Below are positions 1 to 11,211 of a DNA stretch of 11,211 bases, in pieces. Each line of letters begins with the position of its first letter. Position 1 is the first letter of the stretch. This DNA is from an uncultured Mollicutes bacterium. GTDB lineage: Bacteria > Bacillota_I > Bacilli_A > RFN20 > CAG-826. The notes beneath the pieces were generated by a model. That model was not told where the DNA came from and ran no database searches. It was given only the letters and a program-made list of their open reading frames with translations. The position numbers were made by a program, and so were the translations under genes. Where the stretch lies: positions 1 to 11,211 of the forward strand of contig CALBGF010000178.1 in NCBI GenBank assembly GCA_937893635.1, in the 5' to 3' direction.

Positions 1-9
1 TTTTACAAA

Positions 10-39
10 TTGTTGAATTATAAAATCCAATCTTATAAA
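10..39 (+). promoter_or_regulatory. possible sigma-A promoter of the TerB-like gene
   Basis: A TTGTTG hexamer at 10-15 lies 18 bases before TATAAA at 34-39, and the ribosome site follows at 52-58. The spacing is acceptable, but in sequence this AT-rich such matches arise by chance, and the window starts too close to exclude an upstream gene in the same transcript. Confidence 0.35.
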
Positions 40-68
40 ATAATATTACTTAAGGGAGTTTGTTAATT

Positions 69-539
69 ATGTACGCATATGAAATTTTTGAAATAGTTAA
101 AAATAATACTAAAAAAACAATCGAGCAAGAAGGTAGTTCTTGTATTGTTGGCTTTGCAAATGAGTTATATAATCGATTAATACGTAACGAAGGATTAGAT
201 AAGCAGGCTGCTTATGAAGTAATAATGGGGGCTTTTGCGTGTGTTGCTTGTAATGATGGCAAAATATCTATGGAAGAATATTATGCTATGAAAAAAATGC
301 TTAAGGCAGGAGATTATTTTACATATGATGAATTTTTTAATAGAATGGTAAAATATAATAAGCAAGAATGGCGTAATAAGACTATCCAAGTATTTCAATC
401 ATTAACAGATAGACAAGATGCTGTTCAATTTTTATACTTTACAACCGCAGTGGCTTTAATAGATAATAATTTAGCTCAAAATGAGGAATTATTTATTACT
501 TCACTTTGTGGTGTTGTTCGTGATCGTTTTGATCGTTAA
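69..539 (+). CDS. TerB-fold (tellurite-resistance TerB-like) protein
   Basis: Predicted soluble, all-helical protein of 156 residues. The central stretch (about residues 46-75, around ACNDGKISMEEYYAMKKML) has the pattern typical of TerB-like domains: a hydrophobic helix, an acidic Asp-Gly turn, Ser/Met-Glu-Glu, then another helix. TerB-fold proteins are widespread; some bind divalent metal through acidic turns, but most have no assigned role, and tellurite resistance should not be inferred here because no other ter gene is visible. The ATG at 69 is chosen because AAGGGAG at 52-58 sits 10 bases upstream; an in-frame TTG at 60 would lie one base from that site and is unlikely. There is no signal peptide or membrane segment. 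It is followed by its own terminator and appears monocistronic. Confidence 0.6.
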   Translation: MYAYEIFEIVKNNTKKTIEQEGSSCIVGFANELYNRLIRNEGLDKQAAYEVIMGAFACVACNDGKISMEEYYAMKKMLKAGDYFTYDEFFNRMVKYNKQEWRNKTIQVFQSLTDRQDAVQFLYFTTAVALIDNNLAQNEELFITSLCGVVRDRFDR

Positions 540-569
540 TAAGTTAATTTAGAGTAATAATCAATGTAT

Positions 570-600
570 AGAACGTACTTAATCGTACGTTTTTTTATTT
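570..600 (+). terminator. intrinsic terminator after the TerB-like gene
   Basis: AACGTAC (572-578) and GTACGTT (585-591) form a perfect 7-bp stem with a 6-base loop, followed by a T-rich run to about 603. It separates the TerB-like gene from the polyphosphate operon. Confidence 0.85.
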
Positions 601-658
601 TTCCAATAAAAATATAAGGCTTGTTACTTTATAAAATAAAACAAGGAGGTGTATCATC

Positions 659-1375
659 ATGGATAGAAATGATATTTTTAAGCGATATGAATTAAAATAT
701 CTATTAACTATAGAGCAATATAATAATATTTTAAATTCTCTTAAAGATAAAATAATTTTAGATAAATATGGTGAAACCTTAATTAGTAATATTTATTATG
801 ATACACCTAATTATTTATTAATTCGTCATTCGTTAGAAAAACCAGTTTATAAAGAAAAACTCCGGATTAGAGGATATGGAATTATAAAAGACGATTCAAC
901 AGTTTTTATCGAATTAAAGAAGAAATATGATGGTATTGTTTATAAAAGAAGAGTAAAAAGTAATTATCAAGAATCTGTTAATTTATCAAGCAATATGATA
1001 CCTAATTCTCAAATTGAAAAAGAGATTAAATACTTTTTTTCATTTTATAAAAATCTTATGCCTAAAATGTATTTATCATATGAAAGAACTGCTTATATCG
1101 GTAAAGAAGATAGTTCGTTACGTATTACATTTGATAAAAATATCTTGTGGCGGAATTATGATTTAGATTTAAGAAAAGGTAGTTATGGCACTAATGTTAT
1201 TAATCCTAATCAAGTATTAATGGAAATTAAAATTAATAATGCCATTCCGATGTGGTTAAGCAATATTTTAACTAATACAAAAGCTAACAAAACATCATTT
1301 TCTAAATATGGTGTTGCTTATTTACAATTATTAAAAGAAAAAGAAAGAAGTGATATTTATGCAAGAGTTATTTAA
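659..1375 (+). CDS. VTC-domain polyphosphate polymerase-like protein
   Basis: Predicted cytoplasmic-face enzyme of the VTC/CYTH-like tunnel fold, which in yeast Vtc4 makes polyphosphate from ATP. The 238 residues match a free-standing bacterial VTC domain. The charged tunnel signatures are all visible in order: R9/E11/K13 (RYELKY), the YYDT turn at 46-49, K67/R69/R71 (KLRIRGYG), E85/K87 (FIELKKK), K97/R98, R143 (YERTAY), R155 (LRITFD), E189/K191 (MEIKI) and K216 near the C terminus. This suggests an active polymerase, although the residue mapping to Vtc4 is by eye. The start has an excellent AAGGAGGT (643-650) eight bases before the ATG. The end overlaps the following DUF4956 gene by 17 bases, so the two are co-translated. 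VTC and DUF4956 genes are a recurrent pair in Bacillota, often with a CotH-like gene, which is absent here. Confidence 0.88.
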   Translation: MDRNDIFKRYELKYLLTIEQYNNILNSLKDKIILDKYGETLISNIYYDTPNYLLIRHSLEKPVYKEKLRIRGYGIIKDDSTVFIELKKKYDGIVYKRRVKSNYQESVNLSSNMIPNSQIEKEIKYFFSFYKNLMPKMYLSYERTAYIGKEDSSLRITFDKNILWRNYDLDLRKGSYGTNVINPNQVLMEIKINNAIPMWLSNILTNTKANKTSFSKYGVAYLQLLKEKERSDIYARVI

Positions 1376-2042
1376 TAGTATATTTGAAACAAATGAACAA
1401 ACAATCGGAGTTGGTAGTTTCTTATTATGCATTTTATTTGGTTTAATCGTCGGAGCGATGTATTATTTTGCTTATACATTTAAAAATAAAGTAACAACAA
1501 GTTTTAAAACAAGTGTTGCATTACTTCCTGTTGTAGTTTGTGTCGTTATTATGATGGTTAATGGTAATATTGGTATTGGTGTTGCTATTGCGGGAGCATT
1601 TTCTTTAGTAAGATTTCGTTCTGCTCAAGGAAATGCTAAAGAAATCGTTGTAATATTTATGACAATGTGCTCAGGATTAATATTAGGAGTGGGATATTTA
1701 GCCTATGCAACATTATTTACACTTATTATGTGTTTATTAATACTTGGATCAAATATTATTAGTAAAAAAGTTAATAATAGAAATCAAAATCGTGTTTTAA
1801 AAGTAACAATACCAGAAGATTTAGATTATGAAGATGTTTTTGCTGATATTTTTAATAATTATTTCGAAGAAGTAGAACTAAAAAAAGTAAAAACCACTAA
1901 TATGGGAAGTTTGTTTCGTCTTACATATGATATTAAACTAAAAAAGGATAAGTCGGAAAAAGAATTAATCGATGAATTGCGTATAAAAAATGGCAATTTA
2001 GAAATAATGATTTTAAAAGATGAATTAGAAAATACCTTATAA
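1359..2042 (+). CDS. DUF4956 family membrane protein
   Basis: Integral membrane protein of 227 residues with membrane segments at about 17-38, 52-67, 95-112 and 114-133, followed by a soluble C-terminal domain (about 145-227). The conserved DUF4956 stretch is present at about 76-95 (AIAGAFSLVRFRSAQGNAKE), a glycine/arginine-rich turn after the second hydrophobic region. The function of the family is not established. Its constant pairing with VTC-domain polyphosphate polymerases suggests a membrane partner that anchors the polymerase or handles the polymer, as the VTC complex membrane parts do in yeast; this is inference. The ATG at 1359 is preferred over an in-frame GTG at 1350 because a GAAAGAAG stretch (1343-1350), the only ribosome-site candidate, lies eight bases before the ATG. 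No clear terminator follows. Confidence 0.87.
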   Translation: MQELFNSIFETNEQTIGVGSFLLCILFGLIVGAMYYFAYTFKNKVTTSFKTSVALLPVVVCVVIMMVNGNIGIGVAIAGAFSLVRFRSAQGNAKEIVVIFMTMCSGLILGVGYLAYATLFTLIMCLLILGSNIISKKVNNRNQNRVLKVTIPEDLDYEDVFADIFNNYFEEVELKKVKTTNMGSLFRLTYDIKLKKDKSEKELIDELRIKNGNLEIMILKDELENTL

Positions 2043-2057
2043 GTGATTTATTGTTAC

Positions 2058-2267
2058 CTAGTCACTATTAACTTCAGTTATAACTGGTTTACCATCTTTA
2101 TCTAATAATGGTGTAATACCTGTCCCATAAGTATTACATATTATTAAATAGGTAACACCAGTTTTTTTATCGACTATTAATGACTTATCGGCGCCAAAAA
2201 CAGTTGTGTCTTCCTTATATACTTCAACAAATCTTGTTTCTTTATTAGATTTCTTAATAATTTTCAT
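2058..2267 (-). CDS. DUF6440 family small protein
   Basis: Small 69-residue soluble protein. It carries the pattern I associate with DUF6440: RFVEVYKED near residues 12-20, then the VDKKTGVTYL strand (32-41) and the GTGITPLLDKDGKPV ending (48-62). Proteins of this kind are common in Bacillota, often beside phage or membrane-protein genes, and have no known function. The ATG at 2267 is chosen because AAGGAG lies just upstream; an in-frame TTG at 2282 would overlap the ribosome site itself. The gene starts eight bases after the stop of the DUF4177-like gene, so the two form an operon, and it converges with the DUF4956 gene on the other strand with only 15 bases between the stops. Confidence 0.75.
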   Translation of the reverse strand: MKIIKKSNKETRFVEVYKEDTTVFGADKSLIVDKKTGVTYLIICNTYGTGITPLLDKDGKPVITEVNSD

Positions 2268-2275
2268 AATGCTCC

Positions 2276-2446
2276 TTAACAAATTTCTTTTTCTTTAACA
2301 ACAATTATAGCTTTAGCACTATTTGTGATAGAAAACGAAATAAATTCATAATTTTCTTTTTCTAATTCATTTAATTTTTCTTCAAGTTTTTTAGACATTA
2401 TATCAGCTATTGGTTGATAATCGATTACAAATGTTTTATATGGCAT
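2276..2446 (-). CDS. DUF4177-like small protein
   Basis: A 56-residue protein that looks like a shortened DUF4177 domain: an N-terminal beta strand (YKTFVIDY), a helix rich in Leu, Lys and Glu (KKLEEKLNELEKENYEFISF, 19-38) and a final strand ending in IIVVKEKE. Function is unknown. The ATG at 2446 has GGAGG eight bases upstream; a longer reading from 2467 would put that ribosome site inside the coding region, so the short form is preferred. It is the first gene of a two-gene operon with the DUF6440 gene, behind a recognisable promoter. Confidence 0.65.
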   Translation of the reverse strand: MPYKTFVIDYQPIADIMSKKLEEKLNELEKENYEFISFSITNSAKAIIVVKEKEIC

Positions 2447-2479
2447 ATTTATTTCCTCCAAAGACATATTAAAAAAATC

Positions 2480-2508
2480 AATGTAAAGAATCTACATAAG
2501 ATTGTAAA
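2480..2508 (-). promoter_or_regulatory. sigma-A-type promoter for the DUF4177-like/DUF6440 operon
   Basis: Reading the minus strand, TTTACA (2508-2503) and TACATT (2485-2480) are separated by exactly 17 bases. Transcription would begin near 2473, giving a leader of about 27 bases before the ATG at 2446. Confidence 0.55.
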
Positions 2509-2532
2509 TAGAATGTAAATATTAGAGGAAAA

Positions 2533-3051
2533 CTATTTTGTTTTTTCTTGATTATCCATTTCAATTTGATTGAGGCGCTTTAATATTTTTTCTTGGTTAG
2601 TAATTAATGAGTCGACTCGTTTATATAATTCATCTAAAACTATTTCACTTTTCAAATTTACATTATAATCATTTTCGGCGCGTTTACGATCTTTTTCTTC
2701 TTGACGATTTTGACTCATCATAATTAATGGGGCTTGAATAGCGGCAATACAAGATAAAACCAAATTTAAGAGAATGAATGGATATGCATCAAATGCGTTA
2801 GTGGCTAAAATAATATTAACAACCATCCAAATTACCATAACGGCTATAAAACTAAAAATAAAAGCCCAACTACCTGCAAATTTTGCAACTGCGTCCGCGG
2901 CTTTTTGCCCAAATGAAACTTTTTCTTTTTCGTTAGTATTTAAAGTGACATTTGTATTAAGTAATTGATTAATTATTTCTTCATCTGTTAATTCTTTATC
3001 GGTGCTATGTAATAATTCTTTAATTACTCTTTTTCTATTTTTTTCATTCAT
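2533..3051 (-). CDS. DUF1003 family membrane protein
   Basis: Membrane protein of 172 residues with two membrane segments (about 61-83 and 90-111) joined by a short acidic/aromatic turn. The family hallmarks are clear: FGQKAADAVAKFAGSWAFI before the first segment and the IQAPLIMMSQNRQEEKDRKR stretch after the second, followed by a charged, coiled-coil-prone tail (about 130-168). DUF1003 proteins are widespread in bacteria; their function is not established. The N-terminal 45 residues are hydrophilic and acidic. AAGGAG lies eight bases before the ATG. The gene is monocistronic, with its own promoter upstream; no hairpin terminator is visible after its stop. Confidence 0.88.
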   Translation of the reverse strand: MNEKNRKRVIKELLHSTDKELTDEEIINQLLNTNVTLNTNEKEKVSFGQKAADAVAKFAGSWAFIFSFIAVMVIWMVVNIILATNAFDAYPFILLNLVLSCIAAIQAPLIMMSQNRQEEKDRKRAENDYNVNLKSEIVLDELYKRVDSLITNQEKILKRLNQIEMDNQEKTK

Positions 3052-3087
3052 ATGTATATCTCCTTGAAATTAAATTTTCTTTAGTTC

Positions 3088-3116
3088 ATTATAAGATATA
3101 TTATTTGATTTCTCAA
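3088..3116 (-). promoter_or_regulatory. sigma-A-type promoter of the DUF1003 gene
   Basis: On the minus strand TTGAGA (3116-3111) and a perfect TATAAT (3093-3088) are spaced by 17 bases. The predicted start is near 3081, about 30 bases before the ATG. Confidence 0.7.
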
Positions 3117-3137
3117 ATGCTTATTAATATTAAAAAG

Positions 3138-3166
3138 ACAAAAGAAAAAGGATGAAGTCATCCTTA
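3138..3166 (-). terminator. intrinsic terminator overlapping the HMA-protein stop codon
   Basis: On the minus strand AAGGATG-ACTT-CATCCTT (3165-3148) forms a perfect 7-bp stem with a 4-base loop, followed by TTTCTTTTGTC. The first bases of the stem are part of the TAA stop codon of the metal-binding protein. Confidence 0.8.
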
Positions 3167-3391
3167 TTTCATATCGTATCCAAATTCTTTTAATTTTTCT
3201 CTCATTAAATCTAAATCTAAATCATTTTCATATTTAATGACAACGTTGTTTTTTCTTGCGGAAGCTTTAACACTTTTAATATTAAAATTTTTACGAATGA
3301 TATCATTAACATGGGCTTCACACATTCCGCATTTCATACCTTCAACAGGTATTGTTATTTCTTTATAATCTTTTTTCTTGAAAAATAGCAT
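3164..3391 (-). CDS. heavy-metal-associated (HMA) domain protein, CopZ-like
   Basis: Small 75-residue protein consisting of one HMA ferredoxin-like domain. The metal site is GMKCGMCEAHV, with C21 and C24 in the MxCxxC arrangement used by copper chaperones and by the N-terminal domains of metal-transporting P-type ATPases. The last part, EKLKEFGYDMK, is the usual closing helix and strand. It probably carries soft monovalent metal such as copper(I) to an ATPase encoded elsewhere, since no transporter or repressor gene is adjacent. The extra N-terminal residues MLFFKKKDYK are basic and hydrophobic. The ATG at 3391 is preferred over an in-frame GTG at 3400, because AAGGAG lies eight bases before the ATG but touches the GTG. 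Its promoter is near-consensus and overlaps an inverted repeat, which suggests metal-responsive control. Confidence 0.85.
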   Translation of the reverse strand: MLFFKKKDYKEITIPVEGMKCGMCEAHVNDIIRKNFNIKSVKASARKNNVVIKYENDLDLDLMREKLKEFGYDMK

Positions 3392-3403
3392 ATTAGTCAC
3401 TCC

Positions 3404-3515: not shown

Positions 3516-4349
3516 ATGAATAGTTATATATTTGATAAAAGAATTCAATTAAAAGAAGCTCCGCAAAAAGTTAATTCTGTGGTTTTAGAAAATGCTTTTA
3601 ATTATGTAAAAGTAAAAGAAGGAATTCATGTAATGGGAAAAATTGGTATTACTGGTGAATGTTCTTGTGATGAACATTGTTTTCCTTTTGTGGATACTTT
3701 AGATATTGATTTAATTGTTCCGGGTGACGTGATTGGAAGCTTAAAATCATTAAAACTTGTAATTGATAATTATGATTATCATATTGTCGATGATTGCTTG
3801 AATTTTAAAATTAAATGTAATCTAGAAGGTTATGATAATTCTGAAGAAGATTTAGAAATTGATAAAGCATTTGAAGAGGCAACGAGTAATTTATCAATTG
3901 ATAATAAAAATGAGTTATTAGAACAATTTCGTGATACTTTATCAAATGAAGATGAAAAAACAATTGAAGATTTAATAAATGGTAAAGTAGATGTTATAAC
4001 TACAACGGAAGAAGGAAATAGTGAACATCCTTATATTGATGATAAATCATTTGATGAACAAGTACCAGTTGATGAATTAACTGATAAAATTGAACCTGTA
4101 AACGCCATTAACAATGAAGTTATTGAAGGTAAAATTAATGAAATCAAATCGAATTTAAATAAAAATAATACTAGTAATGCATTATTTAAAGAAGAAAGAT
4201 TTGTGGTATTTTCAAGTTTTTATCGTGTTAAAAAAGATGATACTTACGCTTCAATAGCTAAAAATTATCAAATAGATGAAGCACATTTAAGAAAAAGTAA
4301 TAATGAAAAAGAATTAAGTGAAGGAACCTTACTTCGCATCCCACGATGA
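3516..4349 (+). CDS. spoVID: SpoVID-like spore coat morphogenetic protein with LysM domain
   Basis: Probable short relative of SpoVID, the protein that drives encasement of the forespore by coat proteins in Bacillus. Residues about 12-105 form a beta-rich N-terminal domain with the wording expected for SpoVID (NYVKVKEGIHVMGKIGITGE, then a LDIDLIVPGDVI strand and an acidic NYDYHIVDD stretch). Residues 107-225 are an acidic, low-complexity linker, and 235-276 form a LysM domain (YRVKKDDTYASIAKNYQID ... GTLLRIPR). At 277 residues it is about half the length of the B. subtilis protein, mostly through a shorter linker. Identification rests on domain order plus the neighbour: the following gene is YsxE-like, and spoVID-ysxE is the Bacillus arrangement. 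AGGTGA at 3506-3511 precedes the ATG. The TGA stop overlaps the next ATG, so translation is coupled. A generic LysM protein is the alternative. Confidence 0.72.
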   Translation: MNSYIFDKRIQLKEAPQKVNSVVLENAFNYVKVKEGIHVMGKIGITGECSCDEHCFPFVDTLDIDLIVPGDVIGSLKSLKLVIDNYDYHIVDDCLNFKIKCNLEGYDNSEEDLEIDKAFEEATSNLSIDNKNELLEQFRDTLSNEDEKTIEDLINGKVDVITTTEEGNSEHPYIDDKSFDEQVPVDELTDKIEPVNAINNEVIEGKINEIKSNLNKNNTSNALFKEERFVVFSSFYRVKKDDTYASIAKNYQIDEAHLRKSNNEKELSEGTLLRIPR

Positions 4350-5278
4350 AAGATATAATTGAATCGCGCTACAACATTAAAATTAATGCGATTATCAAAA
4401 TAACGAATAAGTCTTATAAATTAATGTGCGAAGAAGGAAACTTTGTTTTAAAGTATCATAATGATCAAACATTAGAAACAATATTTTCCCGTTTATCAAT
4501 GATTAATAATGATGTGTTCTTGTTACCAATTAAATCATATAATGGCAATTATATTGAAACATTTCAAAATTTGTATTTTGCTATTTATCCTTTTGTTAAT
4601 GATGAAGTTTTGTTAAATAAGGACATTAGATTACACTTTTATGTAAAAGCAATTGCTAATTTGCATTTATGGTCGCATTATTCAATTAAAGTTAGTGATG
4701 GTTTTTTTAATGAATCATTAGATTATTTAGAAAATCAATGTGATAAAGTAGATGCTACGATTACAAGTAGAATTGAAAGAATTGAACGAGAAGAATATCA
4801 TTCTCCATCAGATTGGTATTTCTTAATGAATTACGATCATATTAAAAAAGCACTTGATGAAGCTCGAAGAAGAATAGATAACTTAGAAGATGCTTGGAAA
4901 GAAGAAAAAAATCTTAATTTGTCATTAACCTATCAAAACTTTGATTATTCGCATATCTTAGTAAAACAAAATAAGATTATATCGCTTGATAAAATGGCTT
5001 TAGCGCCTTCTATTTATGATTTAAGACAATTATTTAACGAAGCTTATATTTCAAAAATTGATATTGCTTCTTTAATTAAAGAGTATATGGATATTAATCC
5101 ATTACAAAAATATGAAAAAGAATGGCTATTAGCGTTCTTATTCATACCTAGTATTACGCATGTTAACGATGAAATAAAAGATATTGAACTATTATTTAAG
5201 TGTCTTAATCGCTTAACTTCTGTTGAATCTTTTGCTAACTTATTAACAGAAGAAGAAACTAGTGAAGAAAGTAATTAA
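4346..5278 (+). CDS. ysxE: YsxE/CotS-family kinase-like spore coat protein
   Basis: A 310-residue protein with the outline of the aminoglycoside-phosphotransferase/CotS fold. The N-lobe has NFVLKYH with K36 as the likely ATP-site lysine, then a hinge-like LYFAIYPFV (76-84). The middle carries the AIANLHLWS helix (102-110). The C-lobe has LTYQNFDYSHILV (194-206), where active enzymes read roughly LxHGDxxxxNhLV, and an APSIYDLRQLF ending (220-230). The catalytic Asp appears replaced by N198 and the metal-binding Asn by H203, so it is probably a pseudokinase, as seems common in coat proteins of this family. It starts at ATGA shared with the SpoVID-like stop, the same partnership as in B. subtilis. 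A strong terminator follows 20 bases after the stop. The assignment to YsxE rather than CotS or YutH relies on position. Confidence 0.7.
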   Translation: MKDIIESRYNIKINAIIKITNKSYKLMCEEGNFVLKYHNDQTLETIFSRLSMINNDVFLLPIKSYNGNYIETFQNLYFAIYPFVNDEVLLNKDIRLHFYVKAIANLHLWSHYSIKVSDGFFNESLDYLENQCDKVDATITSRIERIEREEYHSPSDWYFLMNYDHIKKALDEARRRIDNLEDAWKEEKNLNLSLTYQNFDYSHILVKQNKIISLDKMALAPSIYDLRQLFNEAYISKIDIASLIKEYMDINPLQKYEKEWLLAFLFIPSITHVNDEIKDIELLFKCLNRLTSVESFANLLTEEETSEESN

Positions 5279-5298: not shown

Positions 5299-5330
5299 GA
5301 CTACTACGAACAAACTCGTAGTAGTTTTTA
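5299..5330 (+). terminator. intrinsic terminator of the spoVID-ysxE operon
   Basis: ACTACTACGA (5300-5309) and TCGTAGTAGT (5316-5325) form a perfect 10-bp stem with a 6-base loop, followed by TTTTA. It isolates the spore-coat pair from the downstream Spo0A-box promoter. Confidence 0.9.
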
Positions 5331-5344
5331 TGTTACATTGCTAA

Positions 5345-5361
5345 TGTCGAACTATGTCGAA
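5345..5361 (+). promoter_or_regulatory. two tandem perfect Spo0A boxes
   Basis: TGTCGAA occurs at 5345-5351 and again at 5355-5361, within a tandem ATGTCGAAC-T-ATGTCGAAC repeat. TGTCGAA is the established Spo0A-binding consensus (0A box), and head-to-tail boxes one helical turn apart are how two Spo0A DNA-binding domains sit on DNA. Relative to the predicted start near 5405 the boxes cover about -60 to -44, ending nine bases before the -35 hexamer, a position suited to activation. No other perfect 0A box was noticed in the window. Confidence 0.8.
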
Positions 5362-5370
5362 CAAAAAAAG

Positions 5371-5398
5371 TTGCTATAAAGGTTACATATTGTATAAT
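5371..5398 (+). promoter_or_regulatory. promoter of the secreted-protein gene
   Basis: TTGCTA (5371-5376) and a perfect TATAAT (5393-5398) are 16 bases apart. The weak -35 and slightly short spacer fit a promoter that depends on an activator; the two 0A boxes just upstream supply the obvious candidate, Spo0A. Confidence 0.75.
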
Positions 5399-5448: not shown

Positions 5449-6360
5449 TTGAAAGGCAAAAGAATGTTTTTAAGTCTAGTCGGAGTTGTGCCGTTATTAA
5501 TGAGTGCTGCTAATGGATTAACTGTTTTTTCTAATATTATGCAGCGTCAATTGCCAGAAGATGTAGTTGAAAGAGTACTTTGTGATTCGTCTAGTAGTTT
5601 TAGCGGAAAAACAAATGGATCAAACAATAATAATATTGCTTTTAATGCAACAGTTGACTATGAAGTTTTTAAGATGGGACACAACAAACTTTACACATCT
5701 TGGGATAATAATTACTCAATTATTTTTAGAGTTCGAGTTGATTTGATGAAAACAGTAGAATACAAAGATGGTTGGTGGATTTTTGCATCTACTAAAAAAA
5801 ATGATGCAACATTATCATATATTACTGCCGATTTGCGAGTTGATACATTGCCAACTGATTATAATATTATCCAAATTATGCCATCTAGCAATCGTGTGAT
5901 GTCCTGTTTTGAAGAATCACAAAATAACGATAATGCCTGTGCAGGCGACTATTATACATCTAATGGCGGATTTTATATTGATATGCTTTACTATTATGAT
6001 GTAAAAAACGGTAAATACCCTAGCGGTGGCGCTATGCCAATTTATTCTTACGAAACACAATTAGGTGTAAAAGGACAATATGAACATATCAAATATGAAG
6101 CACACTATGATTATATTGAAAATAGCTATTACACTGCTCAATCAGTTTTCTATTACGGAGCATTAAGTTTTAAGGGAAATTCCGATCCTAAAAATATAAA
6201 ATTAAATGTTGAAGTTGGTTATGGATTAGATTACACACCAAATGTAGATTCTGACACAACTAAATTGTCTTATGTAACCATTGATGATTCAGGACTAACG
6301 CCAAGAAAAACAACTTATAAATATTCTAACAAAAGTAGTACAACAATTAACATTTTATAA
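5449..6360 (+). CDS. secreted protein of unknown family under Spo0A boxes
   Basis: I do not recognise this 303-residue protein. It opens with a clear Sec signal peptide: basic KGKR, a hydrophobic core FLSLVGVVPLLMSA, and a plausible signal-peptidase site after A21 (SAA-NG). The mature part is polar and rich in Tyr, Asn and Ser (for example YYDVKNGKYPSGG around 182-194), with beta-type alternation, no second membrane segment and no LPxTG anchor. It has three cysteines, C45, C153 and C164; the last two, 11 apart, could form a disulfide. The start is taken as TTG at 5449 because AAAGGGG (5434-5440) lies eight bases before it; an earlier TTG at 5431 would overlap that site. Local G+C looks somewhat higher than in the downstream transporter genes. 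It may be a secreted toxin, signal or spore-surface/matrix protein; neighbours favour an effector served by the ABC system. Confidence 0.8.
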   Translation: MKGKRMFLSLVGVVPLLMSAANGLTVFSNIMQRQLPEDVVERVLCDSSSSFSGKTNGSNNNNIAFNATVDYEVFKMGHNKLYTSWDNNYSIIFRVRVDLMKTVEYKDGWWIFASTKKNDATLSYITADLRVDTLPTDYNIIQIMPSSNRVMSCFEESQNNDNACAGDYYTSNGGFYIDMLYYYDVKNGKYPSGGAMPIYSYETQLGVKGQYEHIKYEAHYDYIENSYYTAQSVFYYGALSFKGNSDPKNIKLNVEVGYGLDYTPNVDSDTTKLSYVTIDDSGLTPRKTTYKYSNKSSTTINIL

Positions 6361-6372
6361 TTTGTTTTATTT

Positions 6373-6400
6373 AACTTGCGGATATCTTTATCCGCAAGTT
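6373..6400 (+). terminator. 12-bp perfect hairpin after the secreted-protein gene
   Basis: AACTTGCGGATA (6373-6384), TCTT, TATCCGCAAGTT (6389-6400) is a perfect 12-bp stem with a 4-base loop, 12 bases after the stop. No T-run follows (TACAATATAT), so it may act as a weak terminator or as a 3' stabiliser of the first transcript. Its 3' end runs into the -35 box of the next promoter. Confidence 0.6.
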
Positions 6401-6427
6401 TACAATATATATGGATAATGTTATACT
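6399..6427 (+). promoter_or_regulatory. promoter of the ABC-transporter operon
   Basis: TTTACA (6399-6404) and TATACT (6422-6427) are separated by exactly 17 bases. The predicted start near 6434 leaves a short leader with AAAGGGTGA as ribosome site. It would allow transporter expression independent of Spo0A. Confidence 0.65.
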
Positions 6428-6452: not shown

Positions 6453-7487
6453 ATGTTGATTAAAAAATTTATTAAAACTAATATAAAATATTTGATGCTA
6501 TTTATTTTGATTTTAACATCATCTTTTTCTCTTAGTAACATTTTTATATCCAATAGTAGTGAAAATACTTATATGGATGTTAAAAGAAATATAGAAATTG
6601 GGGAAATTTATTTTTTTAATGCTAACTCTAAACCAATTGAAGAATTTGAAAACTATTTCCATAGCGAAGTCATTCCTGCTTGTGCATCCAATCTTTTTAA
6701 TAATATATATATTGATTTACCTTCTGATGTTGGCCCGTCATCAAGTTCTTTAACAAATTTACCAATACTTTTTATGGATGGATATGATTATGATTTAGCA
6801 ATTATTGATTATCCTAATTTTTTATATAATAAAAGTCCTAAAATATGTAGATTCAATCGCAATTTTAATGGCAAATTTAAATTTAACATATGTCAAACTA
6901 ATTTTTCTTCAATAAGAGGAATATTTTTAAGTTATGACTTTTATTTAGATAATGAATTAAAAGCAGAGTATTATGCCATAAAAGCGACAAACGAAAACAA
7001 AGAACTAATTGCTAGGTATTGTTCAAATTCTTATTATGGTTTTTATGACTATGGGGAATCAATTAGCCCTGTTATAAGCAATAGTAATGAATCTATATCG
7101 ATTGTATATAATCAAAAAATAGCTACTTACTTATCTTTTGCTTTAGCATTTATTTATTTAGTTATTTTTATATCGTTTTTAAATAAGAATCGTAACGATT
7201 TATATTTGTTATATTTAAATGGATATTCTAAAACAAAAACAATGCTATTTATTTTTGTTTTGCCTATTGTAAGTTTAATTATATCATTGCTATTAACATT
7301 AGCTGTTTCGAATATATATGTTCTTTTATATAATTCTTTAATTAGTAAGTATACTCCGGCGATTGCATTTGGTAGGCTTAACTATATAATGATGTTTTTA
7401 GCAATTTTTATAATATTTATTTTTTCTTTGATATATTGCCTATATTTTAAATATTTTAAACTTAAGCGGGGTGAAGCAAATGATTAA
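6453..7487 (+). CDS. MacB/FtsX-like ABC permease subunit (4 TM)
   Basis: Membrane protein of 344 residues with the 1+3 topology of type VII (MacB/LolCE/FtsX-like) ABC permeases: one segment at 12-31, a large external domain (about 32-222), then segments at 226-245, 264-287 and 311-332. The cytoplasmic turn between segments 2 and 3 (NRNDLYLLYLNGYSKTKTM) matches the place where FtsX-type permeases contact the ATPase with an aligned Arg/Gly-rich coupling helix (cf. RKEIGILRALG...). The external domain has four cysteines (C77, C132, C147, C190), which could form two disulfides. AAAGGGTGA (6436-6444) lies eight bases before the ATG. It overlaps the next gene (an ATPase) by eight bases and is the first gene of a four-gene operon. 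Type VII systems usually move signals or membrane-embedded molecules outward rather than transport through a channel. Sequence similarity to any named subfamily was not recognised. Confidence 0.75.
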   Translation: MLIKKFIKTNIKYLMLFILILTSSFSLSNIFISNSSENTYMDVKRNIEIGEIYFFNANSKPIEEFENYFHSEVIPACASNLFNNIYIDLPSDVGPSSSSLTNLPILFMDGYDYDLAIIDYPNFLYNKSPKICRFNRNFNGKFKFNICQTNFSSIRGIFLSYDFYLDNELKAEYYAIKATNENKELIARYCSNSYYGFYDYGESISPVISNSNESISIVYNQKIATYLSFALAFIYLVIFISFLNKNRNDLYLLYLNGYSKTKTMLFIFVLPIVSLIISLLLTLAVSNIYVLLYNSLISKYTPAIAFGRLNYIMMFLAIFIIFIFSLIYCLYFKYFKLKRGEAND

Positions 7488-8085
7488 AATCACCAATTTA
7501 ACAAAAAAATATAAAAATAAAGTTATATTAAACGATTTAAGTTATGATTTTGATACGCATGGATTTTATATCATAAAAGGATATAATGGTGCTGGTAAAA
7601 CAACACTAGCTAATATATTAGCATTACTTGACTTTAATTTTGATGGAAAAGTTGAATTAGATGGTGTTAATATTAAAAAAATTAGAAATATTAATAAAAT
7701 TAGAAATGAAAGAATTAGTTATATAATGCCTAAAAACAATTTATTTTCTTTTTTTAATGTTTTGGAAAATATCACCTGTTTTAATAAAGAATATGATGAT
7801 ACTTTAATAAAAAATATTGATACCTCTAAATCAATTAATGAACTAAGTGGTGGCGAAAAACTATTAGTAGCCATTACTAGAGCATTAAATTCTTCAAAAG
7901 ATATCATCATTTTAGATGAGATTACTTCGCAACTTGATAAAGAACATACTTTGTTAGTTTTAAATTATTTAAAAGAGCTTCAAAAAGATAAATTAATAAT
8001 TTTGATTACTCATGATATACGCGCATTAAATAAAGATGTAACTATTTTAGAATTAAAAGAAGGAAAATTATATGATTGTAATTAA
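7480..8085 (+). CDS. ABC transporter ATP-binding protein
   Basis: ATPase of 201 residues, a single nucleotide-binding domain. Visible motifs: Walker A GYNGAGKTT (34-42), signature LSGGE (122-126), Walker B IIILDE with catalytic E147, D-loop SQLD (150-153) and H-loop H178 (ITHD). The Q-loop is unusual: at ISYIMPKNNLFSFFNVLENI (79-98) the expected glutamine aligns with P84. The ATG at 7480 is preferred over an upstream GTG at 7471, since GGGGTGA (7468-7474) serves as its ribosome site. It overlaps both neighbours, by 8 and 14 bases, so it is made in step with the permease and with the fused ATPase-permease. The most likely assembly is permease plus this ATPase as one half, and the fusion protein as the other half, of a heterodimeric MacB-like exporter or extractor. 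Confidence 0.93.
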   Translation: MIKITNLTKKYKNKVILNDLSYDFDTHGFYIIKGYNGAGKTTLANILALLDFNFDGKVELDGVNIKKIRNINKIRNERISYIMPKNNLFSFFNVLENITCFNKEYDDTLIKNIDTSKSINELSGGEKLLVAITRALNSSKDIIILDEITSQLDKEHTLLVLNYLKELQKDKLIILITHDIRALNKDVTILELKEGKLYDCN

Positions 8086-10186
8086 TGATTTAACTTTTGG
8101 ATACAAAAACAAGTTGATTTTTAATCAAGCATCTTTAATATTACCAGATAAAGGTGTAATTATATTAAAAGGTGATAATGGTAGTGGCAAATCAACTTTA
8201 TTAAAAATAATATCTGGTGAGTTAATTAATGATGATATTAAATTAGAATATAACCATATTACTATAGATGAAAAGAATAAAGATTATTTAACAAGTCGTA
8301 TAACTTATATTTCTCAAACTAATAATTTTGTTGGTTTTCTTAACGCTTCAGAAAATGCTTCTTTAAATGATTTGATTAATAAAAAGGGAATAAAACCATT
8401 AACACTTTTAGATGATAATAAATTTAAAAATAAAAAGGAAACACAATTATCAAACGGTGAAAAAGTATTAATAACATTAGAACGTGCAATTAACGAAAAT
8501 AAAGATATTATTTTATTAGATGAATGTAGTGACTTTTTAGATGACTATAATACTAATTTACTCATTAATAACATTAATGCTTTATCAGATAAAAGTTTAA
8601 TTGTTATTGTAAGTCACGATGAAAGAATAATTAATGCTTTTAAAAATCACATTAACATTGAAAATAAAAAATTGATTGCAAATTTTAAGTGCGTTGATAA
8701 CGCTAATAAAATAAATGAAAATCATGAAAGTAGTAAGCACAAATCTTCATCTTATATAACTAAAAAACTAGTTAGAAAACAAATGCCATTTATAAGCCTA
8801 TTTTTTATGTTACTGTTTCTTTTCAATAGTGTCTTTTTAGCAGGATTTTCTTTCTTGAGTTATTCAAAAATTAATAGTTACATGTCTTGCATAGGAGAGA
8901 ACTATTATCAATTATCTAGTACATCTTTTCGACGAGTAACAATCAATAAAACTAGTTTTAAAGTTACAAGTGATACAAACTCATATATAAAAGAAGAAAT
9001 AATTGATAGGTTATCAAACGATTTTGATATTCCCTATTTTTGTTCTTTAGGCACTAGTCTTTTTATAAGTAATGGAGAAAAAATTGGTAAAGTAAAAATA
9101 TCTTCAAAAGAATATGATGAACAATTTAAATATTCGAATATTAAGGATGATATGTTACAAATTTATCTTAATAGTTATAAAACTTATATATCTATTCCTT
9201 ATGAAGTTATTGATGATGAAGATACATCTTTATTTTCCATAGTAATTAGTAAAAATGATTTAGACGCTGTTATCTACAATGAACCAATCAGCGTTAGTGG
9301 CGCTATATGGGAAAATGATAATTTCTTATTTTCGAATAATGAATCTATCAAGAAACTATTATCAATTGAAGGAAGACTTAATTTTTTTACTAAACAAATG
9401 TATGAAGATAAATATGATGTTAGTTTAAACGATGATATTAGCGATAATAAGCTTTATATATCAAAAACACTAGATCAAATGTACCATACAAATAATGAAC
9501 TAAACTTTTTTAACTTTGAAAACGTAGATATGGCTGAGTATACAAAATCATTTTTCAATCTTAATGAAATATTTCATAATACTTATTTAGTAAGTGATTT
9601 TGAAAATAATTCCTTAATAAGTAATGAAGTTATAATAAGCGACAATAACTACAAAAAATTAGTTTCATTAATTGATTTAATTGATAATCCATTCATTTAT
9701 TTAAAAAAATCTGACTTGCAACTAGTTAAAAAATATTATCAAGATAATATTAAATTATCAGAATATTATCTATTTAAATATAAAAATTATACTGGGTACA
9801 AACTTAATGATTTTTATAAATTTTTAGATTTTTATAATGAAAATGCTATTTTTTATAGTGCTTTATTAGTGTTATTATTAATTCCCGAATTATCTATAAT
9901 TTATATTGTAATAAAAGGATATAAAACAAGTAATAGTAGTAATTATTTAATTGTTTCACGTTATTTCAACAAAAAAGAAACATCATTTATATTTAGCATT
10001 CCTTATCTTATTTCGTTAGTTATATCATTTATAGCTAGTCTATTAGGTTCTACCTTATTATTAAAAATGATATTTAAAAATCTTGAATTTAACATTATGC
10101 CTTTTAAGATTAATTTTATTTCTATTTCTTTATTACTTGTTTTAAATAGTTTATTATATCTAGTGATGAGAAAAATTAAAAAGTAG
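8072..10186 (+). CDS. ABC ATPase-permease fusion, MacB-like architecture
   Basis: A 704-residue fusion. Residues 1-205 form an ATPase domain: Walker A GDNGSGKST (34-42), Q-loop Q82, signature LSNGE (126-130, a G-to-N change from LSGGE), Walker B IILLDE (catalytic E151) and H-loop H182. A polar linker (about 205-235) leads to a permease with one membrane segment at about 240-264, a large external domain (about 265-592) and three segments at about 593-615, 638-666 and 681-699. ATPase first, then four segments with a periplasm-type domain after the first, is the MacB order. The external domain has two early cysteines, C273 and C324. It overlaps the preceding ATPase gene by 14 bases, with AAGGA (8060-8064) seven bases before the ATG. 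It likely pairs with the separate permease and ATPase. Substrate is unknown: the adjacent Sec-secreted protein does not need it for export, so immunity or membrane extraction is plausible. Confidence 0.82.
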   Translation: MIVINDLTFGYKNKLIFNQASLILPDKGVIILKGDNGSGKSTLLKIISGELINDDIKLEYNHITIDEKNKDYLTSRITYISQTNNFVGFLNASENASLNDLINKKGIKPLTLLDDNKFKNKKETQLSNGEKVLITLERAINENKDIILLDECSDFLDDYNTNLLINNINALSDKSLIVIVSHDERIINAFKNHINIENKKLIANFKCVDNANKINENHESSKHKSSSYITKKLVRKQMPFISLFFMLLFLFNSVFLAGFSFLSYSKINSYMSCIGENYYQLSSTSFRRVTINKTSFKVTSDTNSYIKEEIIDRLSNDFDIPYFCSLGTSLFISNGEKIGKVKISSKEYDEQFKYSNIKDDMLQIYLNSYKTYISIPYEVIDDEDTSLFSIVISKNDLDAVIYNEPISVSGAIWENDNFLFSNNESIKKLLSIEGRLNFFTKQMYEDKYDVSLNDDISDNKLYISKTLDQMYHTNNELNFFNFENVDMAEYTKSFFNLNEIFHNTYLVSDFENNSLISNEVIISDNNYKKLVSLIDLIDNPFIYLKKSDLQLVKKYYQDNIKLSEYYLFKYKNYTGYKLNDFYKFLDFYNENAIFYSALLVLLLIPELSIIYIVIKGYKTSNSSNYLIVSRYFNKKETSFIFSIPYLISLVISFIASLLGSTLLLKMIFKNLEFNIMPFKINFISISLLLVLNSLLYLVMRKIKK

Positions 10187-10195
10187 GAAATGAAT

Positions 10196-11134
10196 ATGCA
10201 ATTATTTATATTAAAGGATAGTTATCCTAAAAATGTCATTATTAAAAATAGTGATAATAATGAAGAAAGAACTTATAAAAATTTTAATGAATTTAAAAGT
10301 GACTTACCATTTTTATTAGCGGTATCAAAAACTAATCACGTATTACTAGAATTAGATTTTGGTAGGTCACGTCCAATCGCAACATCAAATATATATTTGA
10401 TATTATTTAATCAAAGATATACAGATTTAAGTAACTATTCTAGCGTTAATTTTTATGAGTATAATGAAAACGATGATTTAGCTAAATTTGATGATTTGTT
10501 TTTAGAATTTTTATTAAAGAAAACATATATCAACGCTTTTGATAATACTAAAAAAATTGCTTTAGATTGGCTTTCGAATATGGAAAGTGAAAGAAAAAAT
10601 ATTGCATTTATAGGTGAACAATTAATTCAACTTACATTATCTAACCTCTTTTATGATGATAGTACTTCGATAATTGATATTCAAGAAATTACAAAAGAAT
10701 TTATGACTAATGAACATTATCAATTAATATTTGATCATTATAATCTCTATAGATTTATAAAAAACAGAAATCAAGTGATTGATATTAATTATATGAAAGA
10801 AACCATTAATGCTCTTATATATGCATATTTTAAAGAAAATAATAGTTTTGATAGTTTGGAAAATATTTTACGATTCTTTATAAATTTAATTAATCCAAAT
10901 CTATTAGATTTTACTCTTGAAAAAGAAGCATATGCTGATTTATCTGGATACTTATTAAAAGCTTTTAACGAAGGTAAGGAAGAAGTAACTTTTAAAGAAA
11001 TAGAACAATATTCTAATCATAAATTAGATGCTAAATTACTGATGGGAATATATTTACTTGAAGATTATGGCTTTAGATTTATTAAATTTGATTTTACTCA
11101 AAAACTTGCAAAATTTAAACTATTTTGTAATTAA
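10196..11134 (+). CDS. unrecognised soluble protein, last gene of the ABC operon
   Basis: I do not recognise this 312-residue protein. It has no signal peptide or membrane segment and is predicted cytoplasmic. The N-terminal third is mixed alpha/beta (VLLELDFGRSRPIATSNIYL at about 53-72), while the remainder (about 100-312) looks mostly helical, with leucine, asparagine and aromatic residues and charged stretches. No nucleotide-binding, DNA-binding helix-turn-helix or catalytic motif stands out. The ATG at 10196 is favoured over one at 10190, because AGGA in TAGGAAA (10184-10190, overlapping the upstream stop) lies seven bases before it. Close spacing (nine bases after the upstream stop) places it in the transporter operon. 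A role as immunity factor, regulator or partner of the ATPases is possible but unsupported. No terminator follows before the T-box-like leader. Confidence 0.75.
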   Translation: MQLFILKDSYPKNVIIKNSDNNEERTYKNFNEFKSDLPFLLAVSKTNHVLLELDFGRSRPIATSNIYLILFNQRYTDLSNYSSVNFYEYNENDDLAKFDDLFLEFLLKKTYINAFDNTKKIALDWLSNMESERKNIAFIGEQLIQLTLSNLFYDDSTSIIDIQEITKEFMTNEHYQLIFDHYNLYRFIKNRNQVIDINYMKETINALIYAYFKENNSFDSLENILRFFINLINPNLLDFTLEKEAYADLSGYLLKAFNEGKEEVTFKEIEQYSNHKLDAKLLMGIYLLEDYGFRFIKFDFTQKLAKFKLFCN

Positions 11135-11138
11135 ACTA

Positions 11139-11167
11139 TTGTAATTTATCATTTTCTAGCATAAACT
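11139..11167 (+). promoter_or_regulatory. possible promoter of the T-box-like leader
   Basis: TTGTAA (11139-11144) and TAAACT (11162-11167) have a 17-base spacer, predicting a start near 11174. Other weak pairs in the same AT-rich stretch cannot be excluded, and a full stem I may need a start slightly further upstream. Confidence 0.4.
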
Positions 11168-11211
11168 AATAGTGTCGGTAGCGAAAAAGGCCAGTGGGTG
11201 TGAGTCACTGG
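11166..11211 (+). promoter_or_regulatory. 5' part of a probable T-box riboswitch, cut by the window end
   Basis: AGCGA (11180-11184) followed by GCCAGTG (11190-11196), GGTGTGAG and TCACTGG (11205-11211) matches the apical part of T-box stem I, which typically reads AGAGAGCC..GG-GGTGnGAG-CC..GGT. The paired arms CCAGTG/CACTGG are perfectly complementary. The specifier codon, antiterminator and T-box sequence would lie beyond the window, so the amino acid cannot be read. By comparison with B. subtilis, where ysxE is followed by valS with a T-box leader, valine and valS are the prediction. Confidence 0.62.

What the first reader, a model, noticed from the sequence alone, without database searches (positions are those of the whole stretch)
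5345..5361. Two tandem perfect Spo0A boxes upstream of an unknown secreted-protein gene
TGTCGAA appears twice, exactly 10 bases apart, on the same strand and immediately upstream of a weak -35/perfect -10 promoter. A 7-mer consensus repeated with one-turn spacing at about -60 to -44 is very unlikely by chance in a sequence this AT-rich. It implies that the organism has Spo0A and that the secreted protein is switched on at, or before, sporulation entry.
Basis: partly seen in the sequence, partly recalled or inferred. Interest (0 to 1): 0.85.

Follow-up and report, generated by a model that had tools for sequence, protein, structure and literature searches.

The report
Tandem Spo0A boxes before secreted-protein gene
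Two perfect copies of the binding sequence of the sporulation master switch Spo0A sit just ahead of a gene for an unknown secreted protein in an uncultured bacterium, and comparison with relatives suggests that they are real switches, so the protein is probably made as cells begin to form spores.

Summary
The Spo0A reading is well supported but indirect, because no genome is held for the window. The two genes upstream are spoVID-like and ysxE-like. All 11 relatives searched that carry ysxE have Spo0A. In those 11 genomes perfect box pairs (spacers 0-20) concentrate at the 3-bp spacer (7 of 10, all 7 outside ORFs of 100 aa or more), against 1 of 95 in 192 genomes without detected Spo0A from the nearest genus's family. 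In that genus (4 genomes) perfect inverted boxes are conserved upstream of spo0A, and near-perfect tandem boxes upstream of yfhO. Not shown: conservation at this gene (no DNA of close homologues), binding, or direction; activation is the better bet from position. The secreted protein is a very rare family; in 5 of 5 distant homologues with DNA it lies beside an ABC-ATPase gene. Two related AlphaFold models resemble hemolysin/leukocidin-type proteins at moderate confidence, without sequence support. Most likely an ordinary kind of Spo0A promoter driving an unusual secreted protein with an ABC partner.

The parts
5345..5351 (+). Spo0A (0A) box 1, TGTCGAA
   Evidence: exact match
5355..5361 (+). 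Spo0A (0A) box 2, TGTCGAA, 10 bp from box 1
   Evidence: exact match
5371..5376 (+). -35-like hexamer TTGCTA (4 of 6)
   Evidence: consensus match only
5393..5398 (+). -10-like hexamer TATAAT, 16-bp spacer
   Evidence: consensus match only
5299..5326 (+). hairpin with T tail, probable intrinsic terminator of the ysxE-like gene, separating it from the boxed promoter
   Evidence: z -3.9
5449..6360 (+). gene of the secreted protein (303 aa, TTG start, signal-peptide-like N-terminus judged by eye, beta-rich model)
6373..6400 (+). 12-bp hairpin after the secreted-protein gene; may end or attenuate the transcript
   Evidence: z -4.3; not flagged as a terminator
6453..7487 (+). membrane protein with a weak FtsX-like permease match (below cut-off); may have its own promoter at 6399-6427
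7471..8085 (+). ABC-transporter ATPase (LolD and lactococcin-972-group models score best, both below curated cut-offs)
8072..10186 (+). 704-aa protein with N-terminal ABC ATPase and a long C-terminal part, apparently membrane-spanning by eye
10190..11134 (+). protein of unknown function, starting 4 bases after the ABC gene's stop
3516..4349 (+). SpoVID-like protein with LysM domain (context: sporulation gene)
   Evidence: LysM over cut-off; SPOCS_spoVID-N E 5e-4, below cut-off
4346..5278 (+). YsxE/CotS-like spore-coat protein (context: sporulation gene)
   Evidence: TIGR02904 E 3.6e-22, below the equivalog cut-off

Best explanation
5345-5361 is a tandem Spo0A operator. Phosphorylated Spo0A binds the two boxes on one face of the DNA (one helical turn apart), just upstream of a sigma-A-type promoter, and recruits RNA polymerase to transcribe the secreted-protein gene at 5449 as cells approach sporulation. 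Shown: the boxes, their spacing, their place before a promoter-like sequence, the sporulation-type genes next door, Spo0A in relatives, and an excess of exactly this box and spacing in Spo0A-bearing relatives. Inferred: Spo0A in this organism, binding and its stoichiometry, activation rather than repression, and whether the ABC genes downstream follow the same control.
For: Spo0A_C is in 11 of 11 ysxE-bearing genomes searched (of 13 ysxE loci found; L008 and L012 not searched) and in 4 of 196 genomes of the nearest genome's family, namely the 4 of its genus. The DNA-binding domain of the Spo0A of G002 is 65 of 113 identical to 1lq1, with the stretch SRVERAIRHAIE unchanged. Perfect pairs with spacers 0-20: 7 of 10 have spacer 3 in the 11 Spo0A-bearing genomes (reversed-pattern control for spacer 3: 0), 1 of 95 in the 192 family members without detected Spo0A; Fisher p 4e-8, or 4e-6 with orthologous copies counted once. 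All 7 lie outside ORFs of 100 aa or more, while 16 of the 19 pairs at other spacers lie inside, as does the one hit without Spo0A. With up to 2 mismatches there are 52 sites against 25 for the reversed pattern in the 4 genus genomes. Conserved sites: inverted perfect boxes 23 nt apart upstream of spo0A in 4 of 4; tandem boxes with 1 or 2 mismatches upstream of yfhO in 4 of 4, and perfect tandem boxes upstream of a YfhO-like gene in 3 more distant genomes. Pfam YfhO was run on one gene of each set; the others were judged by eye.
Against: No genome is held for the window, so its own Spo0A is not seen. Three of the 4 genus genomes (G002, G003, G016) have no perfect tandem pair, so perfect pairs are not a standing feature of the genus. 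The classical target spoIIGA shows no tandem boxes with 3 or fewer mismatches in the 7 genomes where it was found. The pair may have arisen by slippage of one box. The distant homologues of the secreted gene lack tandem boxes (0 of 5), and two of them (G108, G042) belong to family members without detected Spo0A, so the gene family is not tied to Spo0A. The promoter (10 of 12 consensus matches) might work without an activator, and promoter-like sites are no commoner than in shuffles. The 192 genomes may differ in base composition and completeness from the Spo0A-bearing ones; this was not measured.
Confidence: 0.72

Rival explanations
1. A Spo0A site, but repressing or modulating: Spo0A holds the gene down once it is phosphorylated, or the boxes act with other unseen boxes.
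For: Spo0A represses as well as activates (established knowledge). In the yfhO promoters of the genus the boxes lie 52-54 nt from TATAAT (3 of 4 genomes), not 31 nt as here, so one fixed activating geometry is not shown.
Against: The boxes lie wholly upstream of -35; repression sites usually overlap or follow the promoter (recalled).
Confidence: 0.15
2. Chance or neutral: a short tandem duplication that happens to contain TGTCGAA, without function.
For: A single TGTCGAA is expected 0.7-0.9 times per window, and the repeat is longer than the box, as slippage would leave it.
Against: Only 827 of 11211 window bases lie outside the 14 genes I listed, yet the pair is there and just upstream of a promoter-like site. 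Perfect pairs at this spacing occur once in 192 family genomes without detected Spo0A, inside an ORF, and 7 times in 11 Spo0A-bearing genomes, all outside ORFs of 100 aa or more.
Confidence: 0.08
3. The boxes serve a different regulator that recognises the same heptamer.
For: Nothing here measures binding.
Against: The excess at the 3-bp spacer is seen in Spo0A-bearing genomes and not in 192 family members without detected Spo0A, and the same heptamer is conserved upstream of spo0A itself in the genus.
Confidence: 0.05

Closest known systems
0A boxes of Bacillus subtilis and Clostridioides difficile Spo0A targets
   Same: Core TGTCGAA (PMC3485338, passages read); boxes within about 100 bp of the start codon, as that paper reports for spo0A and sigH of C. 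difficile. The tandem one-turn arrangement is recalled for abrB and for the 1lq1 co-crystal.
   Different: The target is an unknown secreted protein; no binding data; the organism is an uncultured member of Bacilli.
Spo0A-controlled killing operons of B. subtilis (skf, sdp), recalled; search listing only
   Same: Spo0A-type promoter, secreted product, ABC-transporter genes nearby.
   Different: No sequence relation was tested; the product is a 303-aa protein, mostly strands in the model, not a small peptide; no killing is shown.
Alpha-hemolysin/leukocidin-type beta proteins
Lactococcin-972-type loci (secreted beta protein plus ABC genes), recalled
   Same: Secreted protein followed by membrane protein and ATPase; TIGR03608 is the second-best model of the ATPase.
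   Different: 97.5 bits against a cut-off of 254.85; the protein is much longer (recalled); no Pfam family matches it at E 0.1.

Membership tests
Spo0A-regulated promoter (0A-box operator) | match to the 0A-box core TGTCGAA | tested here: met
   two perfect copies
Spo0A-regulated promoter (0A-box operator) | tandem arrangement, 10 bp start to start | tested here: met
Spo0A-regulated promoter (0A-box operator) | Spo0A encoded in the organism | tested here: inconclusive
   own genome not held; present in 11 of 11 searched ysxE-bearing relatives and 4 of 4 of the nearest genus
Spo0A-regulated promoter (0A-box operator) | boxes conserved at this gene in close relatives | not testable with these tools
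   close homologues are protein records without DNA; none found in genome contigs, viral contigs or the 4 genus genomes
Spo0A-regulated promoter (0A-box operator) | physical binding and spo0A-dependent expression | not testable with these tools
   needs experiment
Leukocidin/hemolysin family | sequence-profile match (Pfam or PDB sequences) | tested here: not met
   the only Pfam match in 11 members is Rib in 1 member at E 0.06; profile search of PDB sequences gives 2 unrelated hits, best E 0.3
Leukocidin/hemolysin family | beta-sandwich fold of the family | tested here: inconclusive
Leukocidin/hemolysin family | pore formation | not testable with these tools
   needs experiment
Lactococcin-972-group ABC transporter | ATPase over the curated cut-off of TIGR03608 | tested here: not met
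   97.5 bits against 254.85

The most novel reading that the evidence does not exclude
An uncultured spore-forming lineage of Bacilli times a secreted, hemolysin-fold, membrane-active protein, with a dedicated ABC partner for immunity or export, by Spo0A through a textbook tandem operator: an independently assembled counterpart of the Spo0A-driven killing systems of Bacillus subtilis. A related secreted-protein/ABC module exists without these boxes in relatives, two of which have no detected Spo0A.
Probability: 0.2. Interest if true: 0.7.

Novelty: new member of a known kind. Interest (0 to 1): 0.45.

Why it matters
Spo0A regulons are known mainly from Bacillus and clostridia (established knowledge). 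Here the same box and spacing appear, by comparison alone, to be in use in an uncultured lineage of Bacilli whose nearest genus keeps Spo0A inside a family where 192 of 196 genomes searched have none detected. The target links sporulation entry to a secreted protein family without known function and with very few relatives (3 in a word-based search of 5.8 billion proteins, 3 more by profile), a concrete and testable hypothesis about what these cells release as they stop growing.

Tried and rejected
Tried without result: own genome; relatives of the secreted protein in genome contigs, in viral contigs, in the 4 genomes of the nearest genus; plasmids by DNA. Wider searches gave only distant homologues: 1 of 196 genomes, 3 of 279 with that one again, 2 of 395. 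SpoIIE_N was found in 0 of 12 genomes. SpoIIGA was found in 7 of 12, but 350 bases upstream of those 7 hold no tandem 0A boxes with 3 or fewer mismatches (L094 has one perfect single box at -55, L090 one just inside its frame), so the classical spoIIG control does not support the reading. Of the 8 spo0A genes outside the nearest genus, 3 (L015-L017) share one perfect box 159 nt upstream, L023 has one, and 4 have none.

The first promoter script misread the strand of several loci and crashed; one search replaced it and nothing is used. Considered and rejected: that the secreted operon is a simple insertion between ysxE and valS. In the 11 loci L002-L007 and L009-L013 a valS-like gene (by eye) follows ysxE at once or after one or two genes (L001 ends too early, L008 not read), but the window also differs on the other side (no lon/engB-like genes before spoVID), and no T-box was found in its last 312 bases although L002 and L003 have one after ysxE, so the rearrangement cannot be placed. 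Not used as evidence: TGTCGAATAGTGTCA(T/A)A near a MinC-like gene. The string occurs in 4 of 4 genus genomes, but context was read in only 2, the MinC match is below cut-off, and the site overlaps the end of a radC-like frame, so coding sequence may explain its conservation. Not followed: whether a hemolysin-type stem is present; the middle of both models (about 141-230) is of low confidence.

Full report
Observation. The window holds TGTCGAACTATGTCGAA at 5345-5361 on the plus strand, the only such pair, and no other perfect TGTCGAA on either strand. The pair ends 9 bp before TTGCTA-16-TATAAT, follows a terminator-like hairpin at 5299-5326 after the ysxE-like gene, and lies about 87 bp upstream of the likely TTG start at 5449. 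Chance is hard to price, because the repeat (ATGTCGAAC twice) is longer than the box and could come from slippage; the fair yardstick is how often such pairs occur in real genomes, given below.

Context. The two genes before the boxes encode a LysM protein with a weak SpoVID N-terminal match and a YsxE/CotS-like protein, both partly below curated cut-offs. With an alignment of the window's YsxE and 33 of its 84 homologues, 13 loci were found in public genomes; L001-L003 are 78-80% identical and titled uncultured Bacilli or Erysipelotrichales. I searched the genomes behind 11 of the 13 (L008 and L012 left out): Spo0A_C is in 11 of 11. In the family of the nearest genomes it is in 4 of 196, the 4 of their genus. 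A paper on sporulation loss in related orders of Bacilli (PMC10868615; [quoted passage not shown] I did not establish which of its orders the window belongs to.

Are boxes of this form Spo0A sites in this lineage? Four lines say yes. (1) Perfect TGTCGAA pairs with spacers 0-20: the 11 Spo0A-bearing genomes have 7 of 10 at spacer 3 (the reversed pattern gives 0), the 192 family genomes without detected Spo0A 1 of 95. Fisher p is 4e-8, or 4e-6 when the three orthologous copies in G004, G005 and G011 count once. The two sets may differ in composition; within the 11 genomes alone, with the looser second box TGNCGAA, 9 of 28 are at spacer 3 (binomial p 4e-6, or 9e-5 with orthologues counted once). 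(2) The 7 perfect spacer-3 pairs all lie outside ORFs of 100 aa or more, against 3 of 19 at other spacers; the two looser spacer-3 pairs and the hit without Spo0A lie inside ORFs. (3) In the 4 genus genomes, with up to 2 mismatches, there are 52 sites against 25 for the reversed pattern. Of the 30 of 52 sites whose context I read, 14 lie outside frames of 70 aa or more; of the 11 with 0 or 1 mismatch, 8 do. (4) Conserved sites: upstream of spo0A all 4 genus genomes keep TTCGACA and TGTCGAA 23 nt apart while bases around them drift. Upstream of yfhO all 4 keep a tandem pair with 1 or 2 mismatches, and three more distant genomes have a perfect pair upstream of a YfhO-like gene; Pfam YfhO was confirmed for one gene of each set, the others by eye. 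For C. difficile Spo0A, G2, C4 and G5 of the core are important for binding at abrB, though changes there did not abolish it (PMC3485338, passages); those bases are intact in both window boxes.

Results against. The classical target spoIIGA, found in 7 of 12 genomes, has no convincing tandem boxes. Three of the 4 genus genomes have no perfect pair. The 8 spo0A promoters outside the genus show no common arrangement.

Direction and mechanism. Boxes at about -60 to -44, wholly upstream of -35, favour activation by contact with polymerase, as at Spo0A-activated promoters (established knowledge). The yfhO boxes of the genus lie 21-23 nt further from TATAAT (52-54 against 31 nt; 3 of 4 genomes), about two helical turns, so the same face of the DNA may be used; this is a remark, not a test. 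How many Spo0A molecules act is not settled even in B. subtilis (dimer in earlier work, four per box in a recent model; PMC12090719, passages). Whether the ABC genes follow is open: a 12-bp hairpin (6373-6400) and a promoter-like site (6399-6427) separate them from the secreted gene.

The secreted protein. Direct search found 3 relatives, a profile search 3 more, and whole-genome searches 5 places with DNA. In 5 of 5 the gene is next to an ABC-ATPase gene: downstream in L033, L034, L122 and L123, upstream in L065. Pfam confirms the ATPase in L033, L034 and L065; in L122 and L123 I judged it by eye. So the secreted-protein/ABC pair looks older than its Spo0A control, which seems a local addition. 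Models of mean pLDDT 61.6 and 71.2 (their alignments share 6 rows, so they are not independent) have hemolysin/leukocidin-type proteins as best solved matches. I take this as a lead: a secreted beta-sandwich protein, perhaps membrane-active, with an ABC partner that could give immunity or act on it.

Verdict. The regulatory element is of a known kind. The target is the interesting part and is unexplained. Papers were searched for Spo0A with 0A box, tandem or TGTCGAA, Erysipelotrichia sporulation, killing operons, pore-forming toxins with Spo0A and tandem-box structures. Apart from PMC3485338, PMC12090719 and PMC10868615, of which I read passages or one section, I saw only the listed rows, and none of those named this locus or protein family.

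Noticed in passing
L019, L020, L021, L087 (upstream of spo0A): Inverted perfect 0A boxes TTCGACA-N16-TGTCGAA conserved upstream of spo0A in all four genomes of the genus, suggesting autoregulation.
   Followed up: partly
L095, L102, L096, L119 and L025-L027: Tandem 0A-like boxes upstream of a YfhO-family membrane protein, in the four genus genomes and perfect in three more distant Spo0A-bearing genomes: a candidate Spo0A target that I do not know from the classical regulon.
   Followed up: partly
L108, L111; same string at G002 C48, identical string at G003 C52: Near-perfect tandem box just upstream of a MinC-like gene (weak Pfam match) and overlapping the end of a radC-like frame.
   Followed up: partly
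family of G002 (196 genomes): Spo0A detected only in the 4 genomes of one genus: sporulation seems to survive in one genus of a family that otherwise shows no Spo0A; genome completeness was not given.
   Followed up: partly
window 659-2042: VTC-domain protein next to a DUF4956 membrane protein, a pair with no evident link to the boxes.
   Followed up: no
window 1-3400 and 11135-11211: Gene order around spoVID-ysxE differs from relatives (lon/engB-like genes before, valS with T-box after in L002 and L003); no T-box found at the window's end.
   Followed up: partly
L033 67-1198: Beside this distant homologue of the secreted gene lie a gene that looks, by eye, like an ECF sigma factor and a partner gene, both on the strand opposite to the secreted gene.
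   Followed up: no
L034 1275-2325: The homologue here lies in two reading frames, whereas protein record P0089 of nearly the same sequence is intact; frame break or assembly error.
   Followed up: no
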